Source: a virus
Reading direction: 5' to 3' (one strand)
DNA: 27,021 bases
IMG/VR virus record: IMGVR_UViG_3300042154_001475
Location: 1 to 27,021 of that record
In this document: positions 1,326 to 17,231 of the stretch, piece by piece
Position numbering within the stretch: the first letter of the stretch is position 1
Layout: the number at the start of each line of letters is the position of its first letter
Program-made: the position numbers and the translations under genes
Notes under the pieces: generated by a model
What the model was told of the DNA's origin: nothing
The model's input: the letters and a program-made list of their open reading frames with translations, nothing else
Databases searched by the model: none

Positions 1326-1355
1326 AAAAAACCCGCCTTAATTGGCGGGTTTTTT
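1326..1355. terminator. Bidirectional rho-independent terminator between terminase and spanins
   Basis: A7/T6-flanked hairpin: ACCCGCC, six-base loop, GGCGGGT. It has A and T runs on both sides, so it can stop transcription arriving from terminase (+) and from the converging spanin operon (-). Confidence 0.88.
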
Positions 1356-1814
1356 ACTTTGCAAAGCAGCATCCCTACCCATTAATAACTCCTGAGCCGC
1401 CTTTAGTTGCCTTGTAATGTCGTCCGCTTCAGCTCCAATTCTAGCAATCTCTTCAGAAATGTAGGCTCCCGCTTCACCATTACATCCGCTGGTGCAGGTG
1501 GGATTACTGGACACACTTGCACTGGTGGCGGTACGGTTGCGCAGCCGCTCAGCACGAAGCTTATCAATAGCGGTATTAAGCTCTTTTTTTCCATCGTTTA
1601 ATCCTTCTTGGTATGTTTTAGATGTTGCTACGTATGACTTTGCAATTGATTGTTCTTCTGTGCGAGCATGAGCTACAGCAGAGGCCTGCATGGTCATAGT
1701 GGCAGTTGTTTTAATGGCATGTTTGCCATCATTGTATTTGTATCCAACATATAATCCACCAGAAGCGCCAACAATAAAACTTGCAATTATTAATTGAAGT
1801 AGAATTGAATTCAT
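1338..1814 (-). CDS. Rz: Rz-like inner-membrane spanin
   Basis: 158 aa. An N-terminal membrane anchor (about residues 4-25, LQLIIASFIVGASGGLYVGY) is followed by a long polar, helix-prone periplasmic region rich in Lys, Glu and Ala. This is the usual layout of i-spanins, which act with an outer-membrane lipoprotein to fuse the two membranes in the last step of lysis. A second reading frame encoding a small lipoprotein lies wholly inside this gene, the classic Rz/Rz1 arrangement. The start ATG overlaps the stop of the upstream endonuclease-like gene (ATGA), so translation is probably coupled. The identification rests on topology plus the nested partner, since i-spanin sequences diverge widely. 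Confidence 0.85.
   Translation of the reverse strand: MNSILLQLIIASFIVGASGGLYVGYKYNDGKHAIKTTATMTMQASAVAHARTEEQSIAKSYVATSKTYQEGLNDGKKELNTAIDKLRAERLRNRTATSASVSSNPTCTSGCNGEAGAYISEEIARIGAEADDITRQLKAAQELLMGRDAALQSKKPAN
1403..1594 (-). CDS. Rz1: Rz1-like outer-membrane lipoprotein spanin, nested in Rz
   Basis: 63 aa, read in another frame wholly inside the Rz gene. The N-terminus is a lipoprotein signal: basic MEKK, a hydrophobic stretch LIPLLISFVL, then lipobox LSGC with Cys18 as the lipidated residue. The mature part opens with a proline-rich segment (VPPPVQVCPVIPPAPADV), typical of o-spanins. It would sit in the inner leaflet of the outer membrane and bind the Rz periplasmic domain. The nested position, lipobox and proline content together make this a confident call and fix the host as Gram-negative. 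Confidence 0.88.
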   Translation of the reverse strand: MEKKSLIPLLISFVLSGCATVPPPVQVCPVIPPAPADVMVKREPTFLKRLLELELKRTTLQGN

Positions 1815-2422
1815 AATTTTATCGCCTCCAATCCGTTATCAATATCATGTTGAAGTTGTGTACATCTTGAAAGTAAAGCATTCTTTACTTGTTCGTCTTC
1901 TTGTTCAAATGCAGCGCTGTAGATTAATTCTTTTTTTGCATGTTGCCATGCTTGATGAGCGTGAAAATAAGTTTCAAAGTAACCAAGATGCTTTCTTTTG
2001 CCACTCGATACTATTTGAGATAAAAATTTTCCATTTCTACCACACCAAGACGCACCTATTGGGTATGATCCTCGCTTAGCAGCCGCGTCACATAGAATCA
2101 TGTTTAAATTACGATGGACAAAAACACAAGAAATAGGACTATATTCTTTATTACCGCTAAATATAATATCTTTATCTAGTTGCTTTCCTTCATAATCCTG
2201 ATTTTTCATCCACTTTTTAAAATTAGAAAAAGTTAGCCATTCATCGCAGACCGAACATCCCTTGTATGTTGGTCTTCTTTCCTGAAAACTTTTACTATAA
2301 CACCTCTTTAGCATTGAAGACCACGTCGCATGGAAATGGCAGTATAACTTTTTACCATTTACTATGTTTTGAACCATATAATCTGCATCATTAATGCCAA
2401 TGCCAAGCACTAACTTTTTCAT
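1811..2422 (-). CDS. HNH-like endonuclease with AP2-type DNA-binding domain (homing-type)
   Basis: 203 aa. The N-terminal half carries the pattern of a common phage HNH-like family: TWSSMLKRCY (33-42), PTYKGCSVCDEW (51-62), then LDKDI, a GN..YSP segment and CVFV. The C-terminal half has an AP2-like signature, with a PIGASW strand, then KHLGYF and AHQAWQHAK. Such proteins are usually free-standing homing endonucleases that cut and spread between related phages. It lies inside the lysis cassette with its stop overlapping the Rz start. A diverged copy lacking about the first 50 residues lies at 8406-8873. Nuclease activity is inferred, not shown. Confidence 0.7.
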   Translation of the reverse strand: MKKLVLGIGINDADYMVQNIVNGKKLYCHFHATWSSMLKRCYSKSFQERRPTYKGCSVCDEWLTFSNFKKWMKNQDYEGKQLDKDIIFSGNKEYSPISCVFVHRNLNMILCDAAAKRGSYPIGASWCGRNGKFLSQIVSSGKRKHLGYFETYFHAHQAWQHAKKELIYSAAFEQEDEQVKNALLSRCTQLQHDIDNGLEAIKL

Positions 2423-2495: not shown

Positions 2496-2678
2496 CTATT
2501 CATAGTCATGCATAGCAGCCATAACTTCATTCTGTTGATCAAACAATTCTTCTGATAGTGGTTGTAGTGGGGTGTGATTGGTCATTGTATTAATTCCTAG
2601 AGTAGTGATTAACTCTTCATGGCTCATTGTCTTTGCTAAATCAGCAACATTAACTTCAAACTCTTTATTTATTGACAC
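2496..2678 (-). CDS. Small hypothetical acidic protein
   Basis: 60 aa from a GTG start that overlaps the end of the holin-like gene by 14 nt. The product is acidic, has no membrane segment, and ends in a Glu/Asp/Met-rich tail (SEELFDQQNEVMAAMHDYE). No family is recognised. The start has no clear Shine-Dalgarno sequence, so expression may depend on coupling to the upstream gene. A terminator follows at 2446-2472. It is probably real because it fits the tightly packed minus-strand series, but it could be a chance frame. Confidence 0.5.
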   Translation of the reverse strand: MSINKEFEVNVADLAKTMSHEELITTLGINTMTNHTPLQPLSEELFDQQNEVMAAMHDYE

Positions 2679-2910
2679 TTACATTTAACTTATCCTTCTT
2701 AAAAGAAACAATCCTTAGAAATATGACAATCCAAGGAATCCACTTACCCAGCCCAGCCTCTGCTGGCATGTGCTGAGCAATTATTGGTAATTCATGATAA
2801 GCGAATGATAGCACATCTGTATAGTATTGTGCAAGTACGCCCATGAATGCGCAGAAGATAACCGTGGCTTTTTTGTGGGAGGTGCGCCAGTCATCTATCA
2901 AACGGATCAT
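2665..2910 (-). CDS. Holin-like small membrane protein (DUF7940-type)
   Basis: 81 aa. It begins MIRLIDDWRTSHKKATV, a start seen in a family of small phage holin-like proteins, with two hydrophobic stretches (about 17-38, VIFCAFMGVLAQYY, and about 57-68, WIPWIVIFLRIV) and a basic C-terminus (KKDK). This topology and its place in the same cassette as the spanins suggest it forms the inner-membrane lesion that triggers lysis. It overlaps the gene upstream by ATGA and the one downstream by 14 nt. The family resemblance is from memory of the pattern; holin function is inferred. Confidence 0.6.
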   Translation of the reverse strand: MIRLIDDWRTSHKKATVIFCAFMGVLAQYYTDVLSFAYHELPIIAQHMPAEAGLGKWIPWIVIFLRIVSFKKDKLNVSVNK

Positions 2911-3179: not shown

Positions 3180-3587
3180 TTATTTTCCATCTAGACAATC
3201 AATAAATGATTCAATCATAGAGACAAGTTCTTCAAGCTTTTCTTTTGCTTCGCTAGAGCTTAAAGACTTGTCTGCAAAAATACCTTGAATGGCCTTTACA
3301 GCTATTTCATAATATTTCCTTTTTTTGTATTCCTCATAGTCTGCGGTGGATTGTTCGCGGGATAATGGGGTTTGCCAGTCCTCTGATATAACTGGTATAT
3401 ATGGAAGTGACTGATTAGGGACCATGAAATCAATTAGCCACATTTTTTTATGATGTTTGGAGAGTAATGGCATTTTTGAATATTCAGCCAAAATCCCATC
3501 ATCCCCATCCTGCGCAATAAACTTGCAATCAGGATGCAAATGATTAGGTGTTACTCCTGATTTAATTAGGATTTGGGATAGGTTCAT
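3180..3587 (-). CDS. Hypothetical soluble protein in lysis cassette
   Basis: 135 aa, start ATG overlapping the stop of the upstream membrane peptide gene. The N-terminal two thirds contain mixed hydrophobic and aromatic segments (WLIDFMVP, LPYIPVISEDW). The C-terminal third is a charged helix (AKEKLEELVSMIESFIDCL). No signal peptide, membrane helix or known motif is visible and I do not recognise the family. It is part of the continuous minus-strand transcription unit starting near 4461. Confidence 0.65.
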   Translation of the reverse strand: MNLSQILIKSGVTPNHLHPDCKFIAQDGDDGILAEYSKMPLLSKHHKKMWLIDFMVPNQSLPYIPVISEDWQTPLSREQSTADYEEYKKRKYYEIAVKAIQGIFADKSLSSSEAKEKLEELVSMIESFIDCLDGK

Positions 3588-3733: not shown

Positions 3734-3791
3734 TATTTATTCTCCTTTGCCATTTCAGCGGCGACTGCGGCGCGTGGTGTATGACAACATA

Positions 3792-4418
3792 TCAACGCCC
3801 CAAGAAACTTTTGATAATTTCGGCTTGCTTTGCCTTTGCTGCGTCCCGTGCTGCGCCCCATGCTACGTCCCGTGCTGCGTCCCCTGCTGCGGCCCATGCT
3901 GCGTCCCGTGCTGCGTCCCCTGCTGCGGCCCATGCTACGTCCCGTGCTACGTCCCGTGCTGCGTCCCGTGCTGCGTCCCATGCTACGTCCCGTGCTGCGG
4001 CCCATGCTACGGCAAGCTCTTCCTCTGTCGCCTCACCATTCGCAAAGCGCTCTGCAACATCAAGTGCATTTAAACTGCTCGGGTCAGTTATTAAATACTG
4101 AACTTCACGCACAAATTTAACCGCCATTAAACGAGCTACTTTGTCACATTTTTGTGTCGTTGCACATAGCGCCCACAAGCAGTCATCTACTCCGTTTGAT
4201 TCAAGAATATCAAGAATATTGATTTCTTCTTTGTGAGCAAATCGGATATAGCTACAACTATCGTTATCTTTTTCTGTAAATGGTAAGTTTTGCAGCGAGC
4301 GGACAACTTTGTTATATCCTCCGTAGCAAGCGCCAGCTTTGCGTAATTGTTTTAGCGTGGTGGTTAAAATAAATCGTTCTTGTTTTGCTCGGATGATTGC
4401 TTCGATTTGGCTAATCAT
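3792..4418 (-). CDS. Ala-rich tetrapeptide-repeat protein, Imm-5-like
   Basis: 208 aa, first gene of the minus-strand cassette, with ribosome-binding site ACGGAG before ATG 4418. Residues 1 to about 115 are ordinary mixed sequence (YGGYNKVVRSLQNLP; LWALCATTQKCDKVARLMAV). A segment ending RFANGEATEEELAVAW leads into about 14 four-residue units of the type AARD, VAWD, AAWA or AAGD, then AEIIKSFLGR. A NGEATEEEL lead-in followed by AWAAARDAA repeats is seen in phage and bacterial proteins labelled putative immunity protein, Imm-5-like; what they do is not settled. The repeats should form helices. At DNA level the unit is 12 bp, so slippage could change its length. Confidence 0.65.
   Translation of the reverse strand: MISQIEAIIRAKQERFILTTTLKQLRKAGACYGGYNKVVRSLQNLPFTEKDNDSCSYIRFAHKEEINILDILESNGVDDCLWALCATTQKCDKVARLMAVKFVREVQYLITDPSSLNALDVAERFANGEATEEELAVAWAAARDVAWDAARDAARDVARDVAWAAAGDAARDAAWAAAGDAARDVAWGAARDAAKAKQAEIIKSFLGR
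3839..4015. repeat. 12-bp tandem repeat array with 36-bp higher-order unit
   Basis: About 14 direct copies of a 12-bp unit near GCTGCGTCCCGT. Two consecutive 36-bp blocks, 3871-3906 and 3907-3942, differ at a single base (G3901 against A3937), pointing to recent duplication. The array encodes the tetrapeptide repeats of the minus-strand gene and keeps several opposite-strand frames open by its composition. Confidence 0.9.
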
Positions 4419-4544: not shown

Positions 4545-5864
4545 ATGAACTTAATGATGACGATAAATAGCGCTGTGTCAGCAGCTCGCCAAGCGTTTGC
4601 TGGCAGCATGTCACTAGACAGTAAGCGGCCTGATGCATGGTGTACCTATGGCTACCCGACTGAGATCAGTTTCGAGGAGTTCAAGACAGCATACGAGAGA
4701 ACTGGTGCTGGGCATGGTGCGGTAGAGCGTATCCTTGGTAAGTGCTGGGAGAAAGTGCCGCGCATTAAACTTGATGATGGTAAGGATAACGAATCCACAT
4801 GGGAAAAACAGGTAGGTGTATTTTTCCAAGAAAAGAAAACGAATGTATGGAATAAAATTATTGAGCTGGATCGCCGGGGTCTGGTAGGTTATTACTCGGC
4901 TATCATTTATCAAGTAGCGGATAACAAGCGATGGGATCAACCGCTTGAAACCGCACAGCGTCTAGTAAAGCTTATCCCTTGCTGGGAAAATGAGATTAAG
5001 GCTAGTGCTTGGGATATGGACACCAGCTCAGAGCGTTATGGCGAGCCTACCATGTGGAGCTATACCGAGAACAGGCCATTTGCTCAGTATAAGCAGCCAG
5101 TAACACAGGTACAAATCCATTGGACACGTGTTCAAGAGATGCGGACTGTTCCACTATTAAAGGCTGGCTTCAATCACATTATTGATATGTGTAAAGTTTC
5201 TGGCGGTAGTGGTGAGTCATTCTTAAAGAATTCAGCACGCACGGTTTCTGTTGAGTTTGATAAGGATGCAGATCCGACAGTAAAGGGAGTAGATGGAGCA
5301 GAGCCAGTTAGCCTAAAGGACGCTCTAAATAAGCAGATCCGCGCACTAAACACAAACCAGGACGCGGCGATTGTCTTGCAGGGTGCAAAGGTAACGACAC
5401 TACAAACAACCATTGCAGATCCTACTGGCCCATGGGCTGTACCTGCTAATGAGTTTGCTGCGTCTGTTCAGTTGCCATTTACCGTTCTATTCGGTCAGCA
5501 GACAGGCCGACTAGCATCTGATCAAGATAAGACTGATACTGCAAACCGTTGTGGATCACGCCGTTTAAATGAATGCGAGCCTATGCTAACTGAGTTTATT
5601 CATCGCATGCAGGCAGCAACCCTGCTACCGGCTGGCGAGTTCAAGATTGAATGGTCTGATTTACTTGAGCCAAGCGACAAAGATCGGCTAGAGAAGACCA
5701 AGATCATGGCCGATACAAACAAAGTGACGTTTGAATCAGGAGCCGAGCCAGTTTATACGCAAGAGGAGATGCGATTGATGGCTGATTATGATCCGATGGA
5801 GATTGAAAGGCCGGTAGTGGATGTGCCTACGGATACGCCGCCTAAAGATAAGCCAGTGATGTAA
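4545..5864 (+). CDS. Portal protein (DUF1073-type)
   Basis: 439 aa. Forms the dodecameric ring at the unique head vertex through which DNA enters and leaves. The protein resembles the DUF1073 portal family: an N-terminal ARQAFAG start, a central segment with VSGGSGESFLKNSARTVSVEF, then PFTVLFGQQTGRLASDQDKTDTANR, where portal-like proteins carry a GL.S...D..N signature. A charged C-terminal tail is rich in Pro and Asp. Gene order (terminase, portal, Mu F-like minor head, protease/scaffold, capsid) supports this strongly. ATG 4545 follows a moderate ribosome-binding site (CCGAGG); Met codons at 4554 and 4557 are alternatives. It is separated from terminase by the lysis cassette and has its own promoter. 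Confidence 0.85.
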   Translation: MNLMMTINSAVSAARQAFAGSMSLDSKRPDAWCTYGYPTEISFEEFKTAYERTGAGHGAVERILGKCWEKVPRIKLDDGKDNESTWEKQVGVFFQEKKTNVWNKIIELDRRGLVGYYSAIIYQVADNKRWDQPLETAQRLVKLIPCWENEIKASAWDMDTSSERYGEPTMWSYTENRPFAQYKQPVTQVQIHWTRVQEMRTVPLLKAGFNHIIDMCKVSGGSGESFLKNSARTVSVEFDKDADPTVKGVDGAEPVSLKDALNKQIRALNTNQDAAIVLQGAKVTTLQTTIADPTGPWAVPANEFAASVQLPFTVLFGQQTGRLASDQDKTDTANRCGSRRLNECEPMLTEFIHRMQAATLLPAGEFKIEWSDLLEPSDKDRLEKTKIMADTNKVTFESGAEPVYTQEEMRLMADYDPMEIERPVVDVPTDTPPKDKPVM

Positions 5865-7259: not shown

Positions 7260-7413
7260 TTTTTACCGTCCTTACTTTCTCTAGTGTTTTTGAATGGTCG
7301 CAGTTGAAAGATGTTTTCCAAAATGTGACGCATTCATCCTGATAATCTGGATATTTCGCCATCTTCTTGAGAAACGTCTCTGCCTCCTGCTTTGTTGGTT
7401 GTCTTATCTTCAT
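7252..7413 (-). CDS. 53-aa hypothetical protein, possibly leaderless
   Basis: MKIRQPTKQEAETFLKKMAK, then YPDYQDECVTFWKTSFNCDH and a basic end. It overlaps the frameshifted gene by 8 nt. The -10 of the best promoter ends only 8 nt before the ATG and there is no Shine-Dalgarno sequence, so the transcript may be leaderless or nearly so. The residue pattern (charged helix, then Trp and two Cys) looks like a real small protein, but no family is recognised. Confidence 0.55.
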   Translation of the reverse strand: MKIRQPTKQEAETFLKKMAKYPDYQDECVTFWKTSFNCDHSKTLEKVRTVKNE

Positions 7414-7427
7414 GTATAGAATAATAC
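7414..7427. promoter_or_regulatory. Operator-like palindrome, GTATA-N4-AATAC
   Basis: GTATAGAATAATAC, one mismatch from a perfect palindrome and a member of the eight-site family. It covers the -10 of the minus-strand promoter at 7421-7449 and lies directly upstream of ATG 7413. Confidence 0.45.
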
Positions 7428-7449
7428 GCAATCATTTGTTATAATACAA
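7421..7449 (-). promoter_or_regulatory. Minus-strand promoter overlapping the minor-head promoter
   Basis: Minus strand TTGTAT, 17 nt, TATTAT. It shares DNA with the + strand TGTTATAAT box at 7437-7445, so the two divergent promoters should compete for polymerase. Confidence 0.5.
7437..7445 (+). promoter_or_regulatory. Extended -10 promoter upstream of minor head gene
   Basis: TGTTATAAT; TATAAT begins 29 nt before ATG 7469, predicting a leader of about 17 nt. No -35 at normal spacing. Confidence 0.65.
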
Positions 7450-7468
7450 ATATTATTTAAGGATCATC

Positions 7469-8374
7469 ATGAAAAACCCAATAATCCCACGCAGCAAGAC
7501 AGATCCGGTAGGTGCAAATCGTATCTTAACCAAGGCACTAAAAGAGATTGACGCACGCTTTAAAGGCGCTGAGAGCGATTTGCTAGCTGCATTCAATGCA
7601 ATACCAGTCTATGCATTTAACGATCTGGCAGAGGTGGCTTATGGCCTATCTAATGCTGATCGCTTAGCACTTGCTGAGACAACGCAGCGTATTCTTGATA
7701 AGTGGCTAGTAGATGGAAAATCACCCGATGACTTTTTCTATGCAACGTTCAGCGAGCAGGCAGTAAAGAAAGCAACGGCTATCGCATACACGAACATAGC
7801 CGCCGTTAGTGCCACCTACGCCGCTGCTAAGTCGCTTTCTAATATCATTCATAGCCAACCATATCAAAACGCGATCGCGACAGCTCAGTTTAAGAGTTAT
7901 TCTCACTGGGTTGGTCTTAGCGCACAAACTAAAGCGGATTTGATGCAAGTGATCGCTCAAGCAGTAGCAAGCGGGAATAATCCTAAGAGTGTCGTAACAG
8001 AAATAAGCGATAGGTTAGGAGTTAGCAGAAGTAAAGCGCGTCAATATGCGCAAACCGAAATAACTGATACTTTGCGACAGACGACGATAAACGAGGACGC
8101 CAGGGTAGAAAAAGAATACGGCATAAAAACGGGCCTACTCCACACTTCGGCATTTCTTCCAACAACTAGGCCAACACATGCGGCTAGATCTGGGAAGGTG
8201 TACACAAGGGAGCAGGTGGAAGAATTCTATAGCCAAATAAAAAACAAGGCGAATTGCCACTGTGGGATTACTACTGTGCTATTAGATGAAAACGGAAAAC
8301 CATTATTAACAAAAAACCTAACTGAAAGAATGGAGGAAGAAAGAAAAAAATGGGAAGATAAATACGGTGAATAG
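7469..8374 (+). CDS. Minor head (morphogenesis) protein, phage Mu F-like
   Basis: 301 aa, ribosome-binding site AAGGATC. The C-terminal part carries the Mu F-like head morphogenesis pattern: RQYAQTEITDTLRQ (the R...A.TE helix), TTRPTHAARSG, and a closing NCHCGITTVLL that corresponds to the conserved N-C-x-C end of the family. The N-terminal half is helical and variable. Such proteins sit inside or at the neck of the prohead near the portal and help assembly or DNA ejection. Position after portal and before protease/scaffold fits. It ends at a bidirectional terminator facing the truncated endonuclease gene. Confidence 0.82.
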   Translation: MKNPIIPRSKTDPVGANRILTKALKEIDARFKGAESDLLAAFNAIPVYAFNDLAEVAYGLSNADRLALAETTQRILDKWLVDGKSPDDFFYATFSEQAVKKATAIAYTNIAAVSATYAAAKSLSNIIHSQPYQNAIATAQFKSYSHWVGLSAQTKADLMQVIAQAVASGNNPKSVVTEISDRLGVSRSKARQYAQTEITDTLRQTTINEDARVEKEYGIKTGLLHTSAFLPTTRPTHAARSGKVYTREQVEEFYSQIKNKANCHCGITTVLLDENGKPLLTKNLTERMEEERKKWEDKYGE

Positions 8375-8375
8375 C

Positions 8376-8404
8376 AAAAAAGCCCACTGTATGTGGGCTT
8401 TTTT
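8376..8404. terminator. Bidirectional terminator after minor head gene
   Basis: AAAAAAGCCCAC, loop TGTAT, GTGGGCTTTTTT: a perfect 12-bp stem including A and T tracts, between the + gene and the converging fragment ending at 8406. Confidence 0.9.
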
Positions 8405-8405
8405 A

Positions 8406-8873
8406 TTAGTAATGAGTTGTTTCTATGTCGATATCCAAATCACCCTGTACCTTGTCTGCAATCCTATTCAGTGCCGCAACCAGCCTTTCGTCATTCTCTT
8501 CCTTAGCAGCATCCCTGATGATTGCTATCTTTGCACGCTGCCATGCTTGATGGGCTTGGTGTGGGCAGTCAAAATAACCAAGGTGTGTAACTTTAGAGTT
8601 TATATTTACCTGAGATTTTAGCTTTCTCTTTGATTTATTAAAATACAAACCAATTGGGTATTCTCCTCTTCTTGAGGCATGGAATATAGTTAAACTATTT
8701 ATTTTTTGAGAAACAAAAATGCACGTATCAGGCCCATAAACTTTGTTGCCACTAACCAATAGATCCTTATCTAGCTCTTTCGCTTCCCAGTCCTGAGTCT
8801 CCATCCATGCTTTAAATTTACTAAAAGTTAGCCATTCATCACAAACGGTGCATCCAACATAGGTAGGTGAAAC
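8406..8873 (-). pseudogene. Truncated copy of the AP2/HNH-type endonuclease gene
   Basis: 155 codons open in frame, starting after a TAA at 8874-8876 with no start codon at the 5' end. The first residues read PTYVGCTVCDEW, matching PTYKGCSVCDEW of the gene at 1811-2422. The match continues through LDKD, GN..Y, the AP2-like HLGYF and AHQAWQRAK. About the first 50 residues of the full-length protein, including the TWSSMLKRCY segment, are missing. An ATG at 8804 could still give a 132-aa product with the AP2-like part, but no good ribosome-binding site is seen. Probably a decaying homing-type gene left by recombination at about 8874. Confidence 0.75.
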
Positions 8874-16441: not shown

Positions 16442-17152
16442 TTACCCTAACAATTCCTTGCTTCGCTCAATAGACTGAATAGCTTCATTCATATCCTGAG
16501 TTGCGTCTTTCGCCCCACGCTTGCCCGCCATTAGGCACTTCTTGATAGCGTGCTGCATAGCTGGGCATGTCACTTCAAACGCTTTTAAAACATCGTAAAC
16601 GTCGATTGTGATCCCTTTGCAGGGCTTGTTGTATTTGTTTGCCAACTCCTCGCTTAAATTGGTTGTTGTTACGTGGTTGATGTTTGTGTCAATTACTGGC
16701 CTAAATTCCAGCGTTTCTCGCCAGTTTGGGTTTGGGGTGCATTTTAAAGATGATATCCAATACCCCTTTCCAACATCAACCCAGCCGGTGCATTTTGAAG
16801 ATGATATCCAATACCCTTTTCCAACACCAACCCAGCCGTCGTGATTTTTAGGGATATTTGCATCTTCAAATGTACCCCAAAACCACGGCCCGTCAATATG
16901 ACCTACAAGAATTTTAGCATTTGCTGGCGCATCATCCCAGCTAGGCTTATTTGATGCTGGCTTGTCATTGACTACGCGGTATTTGATAATTTTTTCTTCT
17001 CTATAAGAGCCGCCCCACGCAAGTTTACGTGCCAAAGCACTACCTCTGGTTCCGTCAGCAAGCTCAACCTCAACCATCACGTCACCTGCAACGGGGCATT
17101 TTCCGCCATCGTGATTAATCCAGTCATTATAAATAGGTTCTCTATTCATCAT
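16442..17152 (-). CDS. Mosaic accessory protein with 17-residue tandem duplication
   Basis: 236 aa. ATG 17152 (or 17149) follows GGAGGAAGGG. Three parts are visible. An N-terminal W..H.GGKCPV segment, common in small phage proteins, ends in IIKYRVV. A middle part contains two consecutive 17-residue copies built on GW-V-VGKGYWISS-KCT, followed by WRETLEFRPV. A C-terminal helical domain (YNKPCKGITIDVYDVLKAFE, then MQHAIKKCLMAGKRG) closes the chain, a module seen at the end of many lambdoid accessory proteins. No enzymatic motif. It is probably assembled from modules, and its function is unknown. Confidence 0.7.
   Translation of the reverse strand: MMNREPIYNDWINHDGGKCPVAGDVMVEVELADGTRGSALARKLAWGGSYREEKIIKYRVVNDKPASNKPSWDDAPANAKILVGHIDGPWFWGTFEDANIPKNHDGWVGVGKGYWISSSKCTGWVDVGKGYWISSLKCTPNPNWRETLEFRPVIDTNINHVTTTNLSEELANKYNKPCKGITIDVYDVLKAFEVTCPAMQHAIKKCLMAGKRGAKDATQDMNEAIQSIERSKELLG
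16740..16841. repeat. 51-bp tandem duplication inside the mosaic gene
   Basis: Two adjacent 51-bp copies (16740-16790 and 16791-16841), nearly identical, in frame, each encoding 17 residues including GKGYWISS. The near identity suggests a recent event. Confidence 0.88.
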
Positions 17153-17231
17153 CCCTTCCTCCAAAAACATGCTTAATTTCTAGCCACCGATCAGTAGCTC
17201 CTTTGATAGTACCTAAGTCTAGTTGCGGCAA
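17142..17231 (-). CDS. Possible 29-aa coupled peptide
   Basis: In one frame the 100 bases before the mosaic gene read LPQLDLGTIKGATDRWLEIK, then HVFGGRDDE and a stop overlapping the next start. The residues look protein-like, but the only start is TTG 17231 without a clear ribosome-binding site. It could be a real small gene or the remnant of a longer one. Confidence 0.3.
   Translation of the reverse strand: MPQLDLGTIKGATDRWLEIKHVFGGRDDE

What the first reader, a model, noticed from the sequence alone, without database searches (positions are those of the whole stretch)
3792..4015. Length-variable Ala-rich tetrapeptide repeat protein heading the lysis cassette
Seen: about 14 12-bp units encoding AARD/VAWD-type tetrapeptides, with two adjacent 36-bp blocks differing at one base. 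Known: similar NGEATEEEL plus AWAAARDAA proteins are called Imm-5-like putative immunity proteins, without settled function. Inference: repeat number can change by slippage, giving rapid variation in a helical protein that could interact with a host or competitor factor.
Basis: partly seen in the sequence, partly recalled or inferred. Interest (0 to 1): 0.52.

Follow-up and report, generated by a model that had tools for sequence, protein, structure and literature searches.

The report
Hypervariable repeat tail on phage protein
A phage gene carries a tail of four-amino-acid repeats in which two alanines stay fixed while the other two residues change very fast between nearly identical phages, which looks like a small evolvable recognition module used by many phages.

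Summary
Window 3792-4418 (-) encodes 208 aa: a conserved helical domain (residues 1-135), 14 units of 12 bp (Ala-Ala-X-Z), and a conserved C-terminus. The Imm-5-like label holds only at one remove: the window protein matches no Pfam family, but 6 of 7 relatives tested pass the Imm5_like cut-off. Lysis is only its address here; relatives lie elsewhere.

Near-identical phages differ 54-290 times more inside the array than around it. In six alleles of the window's clade, 101 units fall into 29 kinds, yet 180 of 180 Ala codons are GCA. Across 44 lineages, amino-acid-changing differences between units outnumber silent ones (178 versus 24). Arrays of the same plan sit on several unrelated phage proteins.

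Best explanation: array turnover plus diversifying selection on X-Z, making a helical surface that tracks a changing partner, perhaps a toxin or defence protein. Shown: variability, silent-site constancy, modular spread. Inferred: selection as cause, partner, function. Caveats: most contigs are metagenomic, where repeats assemble badly, and other coding repeats in these phages lean the same way.

The parts
3792..4418 (-). whole gene, 208 aa: N-terminal Imm5_like-related domain, AAXZ array, conserved C-terminal motif
   Evidence: ORF; phrog_18326 E 1.1e-40 over residues 18-200; relatives
4014..4418 (-). N-terminal helical domain, residues 1-135 (invariant in A1: N75, D79, W82, A118; nearly invariant R96, D112)
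   Evidence: alignment of 33; AlphaFold2 pLDDT about 85-92 over most of it
3843..4010 (-). array of 14 complete 12-bp units G[C/T]A GCA NGG GNC = Ala-Ala-X-Z (X = R/W/G, Z = D/A/G)
3867..3938 (-). two adjacent 36-bp (three-unit) blocks differing at one base
3795..3842 (-). degenerate last unit AAKA plus conserved C-terminal motif KQAEIIKSFLGR
   Evidence: last 48 nt identical in each of three close pairs
3180..3587 (-). next ORF downstream, 135 aa, unknown
   Evidence: weak phrog_1826, E 0.0015
2665..2910 (-). holin-like ORF, downstream on the same strand
   Evidence: phrog_1356 holin E 3.8e-6
1338..1814 (-). Rz-like spanin, downstream on the same strand
   Evidence: phrog_1327 E 1.6e-10
4545..5864 (+). 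portal protein gene, divergent neighbour
   Evidence: PF06381 E 1.5e-16; phrog_146 E 6.4e-90

Best explanation
The gene is a phage accessory gene made of a stable helical scaffold, distantly related to the Imm5_like immunity proteins, and a fast-evolving helical array. The array grows, shrinks and is reshuffled by whole 12-bp units (slippage or recombination between units). Diversifying selection acts on the two variable residues (X, Z) of each Ala-Ala-X-Z unit. The Ala frame and the C-terminal motif are kept. The result is a long helix showing a combinatorial pattern of aromatic, positive, small and negative side chains that can be changed quickly. The most likely use is recognition of a variable protein partner in a phage-host or phage-phage arms race, for example a toxin or defence effector. 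Shown: anatomy, hypervariability against flanks, whole-unit length change, silent-site constancy within arrays, same array type on other phage proteins. Inferred: diversifying selection as the cause, helix as a binding surface, nature of the partner.
For: Close pairs: window/L005 22 mismatches in 177 aligned array nt plus 24 gap nt, against 10 in 4320 outside; L002/L003 13 in 213 plus 12 gap nt, against 2 in 4595; L006/L009 16 in 201 plus 48 gap nt, against 1 in 3640. L014/L016: gene 900 vs 468 nt, 4 mismatches and 432 gap nt = 36 units. Six alleles of the window clade: 101 units, 29 distinct, 180 of 180 Ala codons GCA although other window ORFs use GCT 185, GCA 152, GCG 71, GCC 60. 53 distinct arrays with 607 units: X1 varies in 53 of 53, Z2 in 52, the two Ala third bases in 10 and 11. 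One array per lineage (44 lineages): 178 least changes at four amino-acid-changing sites, 24 at two fourfold sites, 38 lineages in favour, 3 against, 3 equal. N-domain dN/dS 0.81 and 0.63 against portal 0.05 and 0.08 in L002 and L006. The Ala codon pair is arbitrary between arrays but fixed within most, so codon preference does not explain the constancy.
Against: Most alleles come from metagenome contigs; short tandem repeats are prone to misassembly, and no reads could be examined. L010, identical to the window over 4770 nt, ends just before the array. A control of 28 other variable coding tandem repeats in the same loci also leaned to amino-acid-changing positions (21 of 28), including pentapeptide-type repeats, so the excess is not unique to this array. 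In L014 some X-Z differences may already have been present in the short founder array, so some counted changes are old. A helix with a four-residue period gives a stripe that winds round it, not one flat face. No partner, no recurrent toxin neighbour, no solved fold. Array pLDDT is only about 61-76.
Confidence: 0.47

Rival explanations
1. The array is a slippage-prone helical spacer. Its length and content drift, limited only by the need to stay helical and soluble; the functional parts are the N-domain and the C-terminal motif.
For: Length varies from 14 to 158 residues between fixed anchors in 136 members; 11 of the 136 sit at the 14-residue minimum, so long arrays are dispensable. Other coding repeats in the same phages behave similarly.
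Against: Drift should leave silent changes as often as others; 0 of 180 Ala codons changed silently in the window clade, and 178 vs 24 across 44 lineages. Trp is very frequent at X (190 of 607), odd for a neutral spacer.
Confidence: 0.25
2. It is a true immunity protein: the Imm5_like domain neutralises a polymorphic toxin or a toxin-like defence effector, and the array tunes specificity.
For: 6 of 7 relatives tested pass the PF21805 cut-off (27.8-42.3 bits, cut-off 25) and one passes PF14423 Imm5 (25.1 bits). Imm5 is described as mostly alpha with conserved R and D, paired with DYW deaminases and CdiAC (PMC3482391, passages); R96 and D112 are nearly invariant here.
Against: The window protein has no Pfam match. 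No recurrent toxin neighbour in 102 contexts. The relatives match only part of the 129-position profile, and a bacterial Imm5_like protein (L255) has no such array.
Confidence: 0.13
3. The hypervariability is largely an assembly artefact of short tandem repeats.
For: Most contigs are from metagenomes; repeats of this kind are reported unreliable from short reads in a fungal case (PMC12222747, abstract); L010 breaks at the array.
Against: Unit kinds unique to one allele (e.g. six AAGY units in L005, none in the window) cannot come from misassembling the other allele. Three contigs with different IMG sample numbers (L006, L007, L008) carry the same array. The length difference L014/L016 is exactly 36 units with intact flanks.
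Confidence: 0.08
4. The 12-bp repeat acts at DNA or RNA level (binding site, packaging or recombination signal), and the peptide is incidental.
For: Regular spacing; strong GC contrast with the genome; several bases constant.
Against: Ala codon third bases differ freely between lineages, while the protein pattern stays; in L006-L009 most of the supposed motif bases change; the reading frame is kept, with 81 of 136 spacings in one class mod 4 residues.
Confidence: 0.04

Closest known systems
phrog_18326 (unknown function)
   Same: Match over residues 18-200, E 1.1e-40; the Pseudomonas phage AF homologue (L043) matches the whole profile
   Different: The family carries no function in PHROGs; hypervariability is not part of its description
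PF21805 Imm5_like and PF14423 Imm5
   Same: Six relatives pass the PF21805 cut-off; one passes PF14423; helical domain with conserved R and D
   Different: Window protein itself does not match; about profile positions 7-93 of 129 covered in relatives; AAXZ array at the C-terminal side; no recurrent toxin neighbour; bacterial member L255 lacks the array
Fungal HNWD/NLR sensor repeats (het-d, het-e of Podospora anserina)
   Same: Near-identical repeats kept alike, with hypervariable sites under diversifying selection inside them (PMC12222747, abstract); works-like comparison only
   Different: Those are WD40 beta-propeller repeats in a fungal immune receptor; here 4-residue helical units in a phage protein with no NLR part
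TAL effector repeat-variable di-residues (recalled, not from a call)
   Same: Two variable residues per otherwise constant repeat
   Different: 34-residue repeats that read DNA; no evidence of DNA reading here
Variable proteins of diversity-generating retroelements (definition recalled; named in the abstract of PMC5299996)
   Same: Localised hypervariability in phage proteins
   Different: No template copy or YxDD-type frame in the window, and adenines in the Ala codons never change silently in the window clade

Membership tests
phrog_18326 | profile match over most of the protein | tested here: met
   E 1.1e-40, residues 18-200, profile 3-184 of 203
PF21805 Imm5_like | window protein scores over the curated cut-off | tested here: not met
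   no match at E<=1 or E<=0.1
PF21805 Imm5_like | homologues of the window protein score over the cut-off | tested here: met
   6 of 7 family members given to (L019, L031, L032, L034, L036, L037; not L038); 7 of 33 at E<=0.1
PF21805 Imm5_like | coverage of the whole 129-position profile | tested here: not met
   matches span about positions 7-93
PF14423 Imm5 / polymorphic toxin immunity | adjacent toxin gene | tested here: inconclusive
   no recurrent toxin-like neighbour among 102 relative contexts, 691 neighbour ORFs clustered, the 14 widest clusters inspected by eye; polyimmunity operons usually lack toxin genes (PMC3482391, passage)
PF14423 Imm5 / polymorphic toxin immunity | neutralises a toxin | not testable with these tools
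   needs a co-expression assay
Diversity-generating retroelement target | template repeat and reverse transcriptase nearby | tested here: not met
   no second copy and no YxDD-like motif in frames of 120 aa or more in the 27-kb window; the rest of the phage is not held
Diversity-generating retroelement target | changes fall on template adenines | tested here: not met
   180 of 180 GCA codons unchanged at the third base in the window clade; no variation at A-ending Ala codons in several other arrays
Fungal HNWD-type repeat sensors | highly alike repeats with a few hypervariable positions | tested here: met
Fungal HNWD-type repeat sensors | WD40 propeller in an NLR protein | tested here: not met
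   helical models; no such Pfam match
Phage lysis protein | match to a lysis family | tested here: not met
   no lysis family in Pfam or PHROGs for this protein

The most novel reading that the evidence does not exclude
Ala-Ala-X-Z arrays are a general phage device for making recognition helices: independent scaffolds in many phages carry the same minimal module, in which a two-residue 'word' per 12-bp unit is diversified extremely fast, either by very strong selection or by a still unknown mutagenic process aimed at those codon positions, much as fungal NLR repeats or TAL di-residues carry specificity.
Probability: 0.28. Interest if true: 0.82.

Novelty: new variant of a known kind. Interest (0 to 1): 0.6.

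Why it matters
If right, many phage 'hypothetical proteins' with Ala-rich tails are not low-complexity noise but hypervariable binding modules. They would point to a fast arms race inside infected cells whose other side is unknown, and the array could be used as bait to find that partner. It also offers a simple natural system for studying how short coding repeats evolve faster at amino-acid-changing than at silent sites. At present it is a pattern in sequence, with no function shown.

Tried and rejected
Lysis role: rejected as a general role, because relatives sit in other places, for example near recombination or replication genes. DGR: rejected within the window. Fold by structure: AlphaFold2 models of the window protein and of the short-tailed L016 gave no PDB match at E<=0.001, and the best VIA-align Z was 4.5. 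BFVD gave one match at E<=0.001, an uncharacterised phage protein (E 7.1e-8), and next an 'Imm-5-like domain-containing protein' at E 1.6e-3. PDB sequences: nothing below E 0.049. PADLOC: one weak match in 33 members. NCBIfam: a few members matched unrelated models (best E 5.8e-6, a glycine-zipper lipoprotein model, 2 of 33), which I read as low-complexity matches. The first codon-position control was spoiled by arrays read in a wrong frame and was replaced. Plasmid search: one weak relative. Cultured-phage searches with two other scaffold proteins found 1 and 0 records, so array change could not be checked in sets of cultured phages. Promoter and terminator scan: no more than in shuffles. Antisense and shifted ORFs over the array were set aside: a stop-free 12-bp repeat is open in other frames by itself.

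Papers: nine searches found no description of this array; only open-licence papers are held. Seen: abstracts of PMC12222747 and PMC5299996, passages of PMC3482391; the rest only as listings.

Rows dropped before counts: A1 took 33 of 45 proteins (44 loci plus window), leaving out truncated, near-identical or partly covered ones. One search examined 164 family ORFs found through the N-domain (re-fetched duplicates included); 66 had at least 6 contiguous AAXZ units, 53 distinct; the others were not counted. The pattern-found loci (L135 on) were kept out and used only, where X2, X3, Z1 and Z3 are fixed by the search pattern and were not counted.

Full report
WHAT IS THERE. The minus strand of the window holds a 208-aa gene at 3792-4418. 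It has three parts: residues 1-135, a conserved mostly helical domain; 14 complete units of 12 bp (3843-4010), each Ala-Ala-X-Z with the first Ala sometimes Val; and a conserved C-terminus KQAEIIKSFLGR. TRF scores the array 280 (period 36) and 239 (period 12). The two 36-bp blocks that differ at one base are real (3867-3938). The array is 71.5% GC in a 42.4% GC window.

SURROUNDINGS. The gene is divergent from a portal gene (4545-5864) and lies upstream, on the same strand, of a 135-aa ORF, a holin-like ORF, an HNH-type ORF and an Rz-like spanin. In cultured phages the relatives lie elsewhere, such as near replication or recombination genes in Pseudomonas phages PPpW-3 and AF. Over 102 relative contexts the recurrent neighbours that I recognised, apart from those of the window's own clade, were YqaJ-like and RecT-like genes (7 and 5 contexts; named by eye from sequence, not by a family search), and there was no recurrent toxin. 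The lysis setting is therefore an address, not a function.

FAMILY. The protein matches phrog_18326, unknown function, E 1.1e-40, and no Pfam family at E<=1. Of 33 family members scanned, 7 match PF21805 Imm5_like and 5 PF14423 Imm5 at E<=0.1; of 7 members tested one by one, 6 pass the PF21805 cut-off and one also passes Imm5. These matches cover about positions 7-93 of 129. A bacterial Imm5_like protein (L255) has an ordinary C-terminal part and no array. I therefore call the N-domain Imm5_like-related and do not file the window protein as a member. It is mainly a phage family.

HYPERVARIABLE ARRAY. In three pairs of nearly identical phages the array differs far more than the rest. Window and L005: 22 mismatches in 177 aligned array positions plus 24 gap positions, against 10 in 4320 outside. 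L002 and L003: 13 in 213 plus 12, against 2 in 4595. L006 and L009: 16 in 201 plus 48, against 1 in 3640. That is roughly 54, 140 and 290 times the flank rate. The array gap totals are multiples of 12. In the L014/L016 pair, the gene is 900 against 468 nt, with 4 mismatches and 432 gap positions, that is 36 whole units. Over 136 members the distance between fixed anchors runs from 14 to 158 residues, and 81 of 136 fall in one class modulo 4.

CONTENT, NOT ONLY NUMBER. In six alleles of the window's clade there are 101 units of 29 kinds: window RD, WA, GD, WD, WG; L005 adds GY and RA; L002/L003 add WT, RN, RE; L007/L009 carry PH, FA, HH, QS, KR, ED, KL and others. Yet all 180 Ala codons at the two Ala positions are GCA; the 22 other codons there are all amino-acid changes (17 GTA, 4 GAA, 1 ACA). 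The third base of the X codon is G in 92 of 101 and that of the Z codon is C in 98 of 101. Other ORFs of the window use GCT 185, GCA 152, GCG 71, GCC 60, so codon preference does not explain it.

ACROSS LINEAGES. In 53 distinct arrays (607 units; found through the N-domain, not through the DNA repeat pattern) the first base of X varies in 53 and the second base of Z in 52, while the third bases of the two Ala codons vary in 10 and 11. With one array for each of 44 lineages, at least 178 changes at four amino-acid-changing sites stand against 24 at two fourfold sites; 38 lineages favour amino-acid change per site, 3 the reverse, 3 are equal; binomial P 1.8e-12 against one third. Which Ala codons an array uses is arbitrary between arrays but mostly fixed within. 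The simplest reading is that units are copied within an array faster than silent changes collect, while changes in X and Z are kept much more often than neutral ones.

CONTROL THAT CUTS THE OTHER WAY. Among 28 other variable coding tandem repeats in the same loci, third codon positions were less variable than the first two in 21, and pentapeptide-type repeats in L014 and L015 had no third-position variation at all. Amino-acid-changing excess is therefore not unique to this array, and part of it may come from a cause shared by young coding repeats in phages. A few of those 28 are themselves Ala-rich or may be read in a wrong frame. An earlier version of this control mixed in arrays read in a wrong frame and is not used.

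NOT ONE PROTEIN BUT A MODULE. A search by DNA pattern that leaves Ala third bases, X1 and Z2 free gave 118 ORFs with the pattern in frame, 116 of them distinct, which fall into 10 groups by the sequence before the array (those with at least 40 residues there): 58 in a group with the Imm5_like-related domain (47 of them by profile match), then 25, 8, 6, 4, 2 and four singles; one single (L145) looks like the group of 6. Several groups have clearly different scaffolds and their own conserved sequence after the array. Their arrays behave alike in most groups: for the 25-member group, 61 changes at X1 and Z2 against 1 at Ala third bases over 23 arrays; the 6-member group is an exception, with 13 against 7 over 4 arrays. 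Some loci hold two such genes, for example two neighbouring Imm5_like-related genes with different arrays in L053 and two arrays in L151.

STRUCTURE. AlphaFold2 predicts a helical N-domain and helices over the array (132-165 and 169-205), with pLDDT about 61-76 in the array. A short-tailed relative (L016) gives a similar helical core. No PDB relative was found. With four residues per unit the X-Z pair turns by about 40 degrees per unit round an ideal helix (my arithmetic), so the variable residues wind round it.

MECHANISM, WITH WHAT IS SHOWN. Shown: array turnover in whole units, hypervariable content, silent constancy, anchor conservation, several scaffolds. Inferred: diversifying selection; a binding surface; an arms-race partner. 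The Imm5 link makes a toxin or toxin-like defence effector a fair guess. Imm5 itself is recorded as mostly alpha with conserved R and D and as partner of DYW deaminases and CdiAC (PMC3482391, passages). The nearest known pattern of evolution is the fungal het-d/het-e WD40 repeats, kept alike by concerted evolution with hypervariable sites under diversifying selection (PMC12222747, abstract); this is a likeness in how it evolves, not kinship.

MAIN DOUBTS. Metagenome assembly of repeats is unreliable and no reads were available; the L010 contig breaks just before the array. However, unit kinds private to one allele, identical arrays in three contigs from different sample numbers, and exact whole-unit differences argue that most of the variation is real. 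Function remains unknown, and a neutral slippage-prone spacer is the strongest rival.

Noticed in passing
window about 3778-3780, against L002 6678-6959: The window and L005 lack about 280 bp present in L002 just after the gene; in L002 this holds an ORF of about 89 aa of which the window seems to keep only the last codons, in another ORF.
   Followed up: partly
window 7314-8867: This region (a MuF-like gene, named by eye) is 99.9-100% identical to L006-L008 although the neighbouring portal gene is only 88% identical to L006: a recent module exchange.
   Followed up: no
window 16736-16838: Two copies of a 51-bp unit, 94% matches, inside the ORF at 16442-17170.
   Followed up: no
L014 5157-5510 and L015 5247-5510: Pentapeptide-type repeats (GANLA units) just upstream of the family gene, also variable at first and second codon positions with no third-position variation.
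   Followed up: partly
L041 3992-4579 (Curvibacter phage P26059A): The homologue is annotated 'tail fiber protein', for which I saw no support.
   Followed up: no
L053 about 393-1564: Two neighbouring, slightly overlapping open frames both carry the N-domain with different arrays, which looks like a tandem duplication.
   Followed up: no
window 2118-2314 and 8406-8867: Two stretches in HNH-type ORFs appear related to each other: sequences of L005, L006 and L010 that match one also match the other at 71-73% DNA identity.
   Followed up: no
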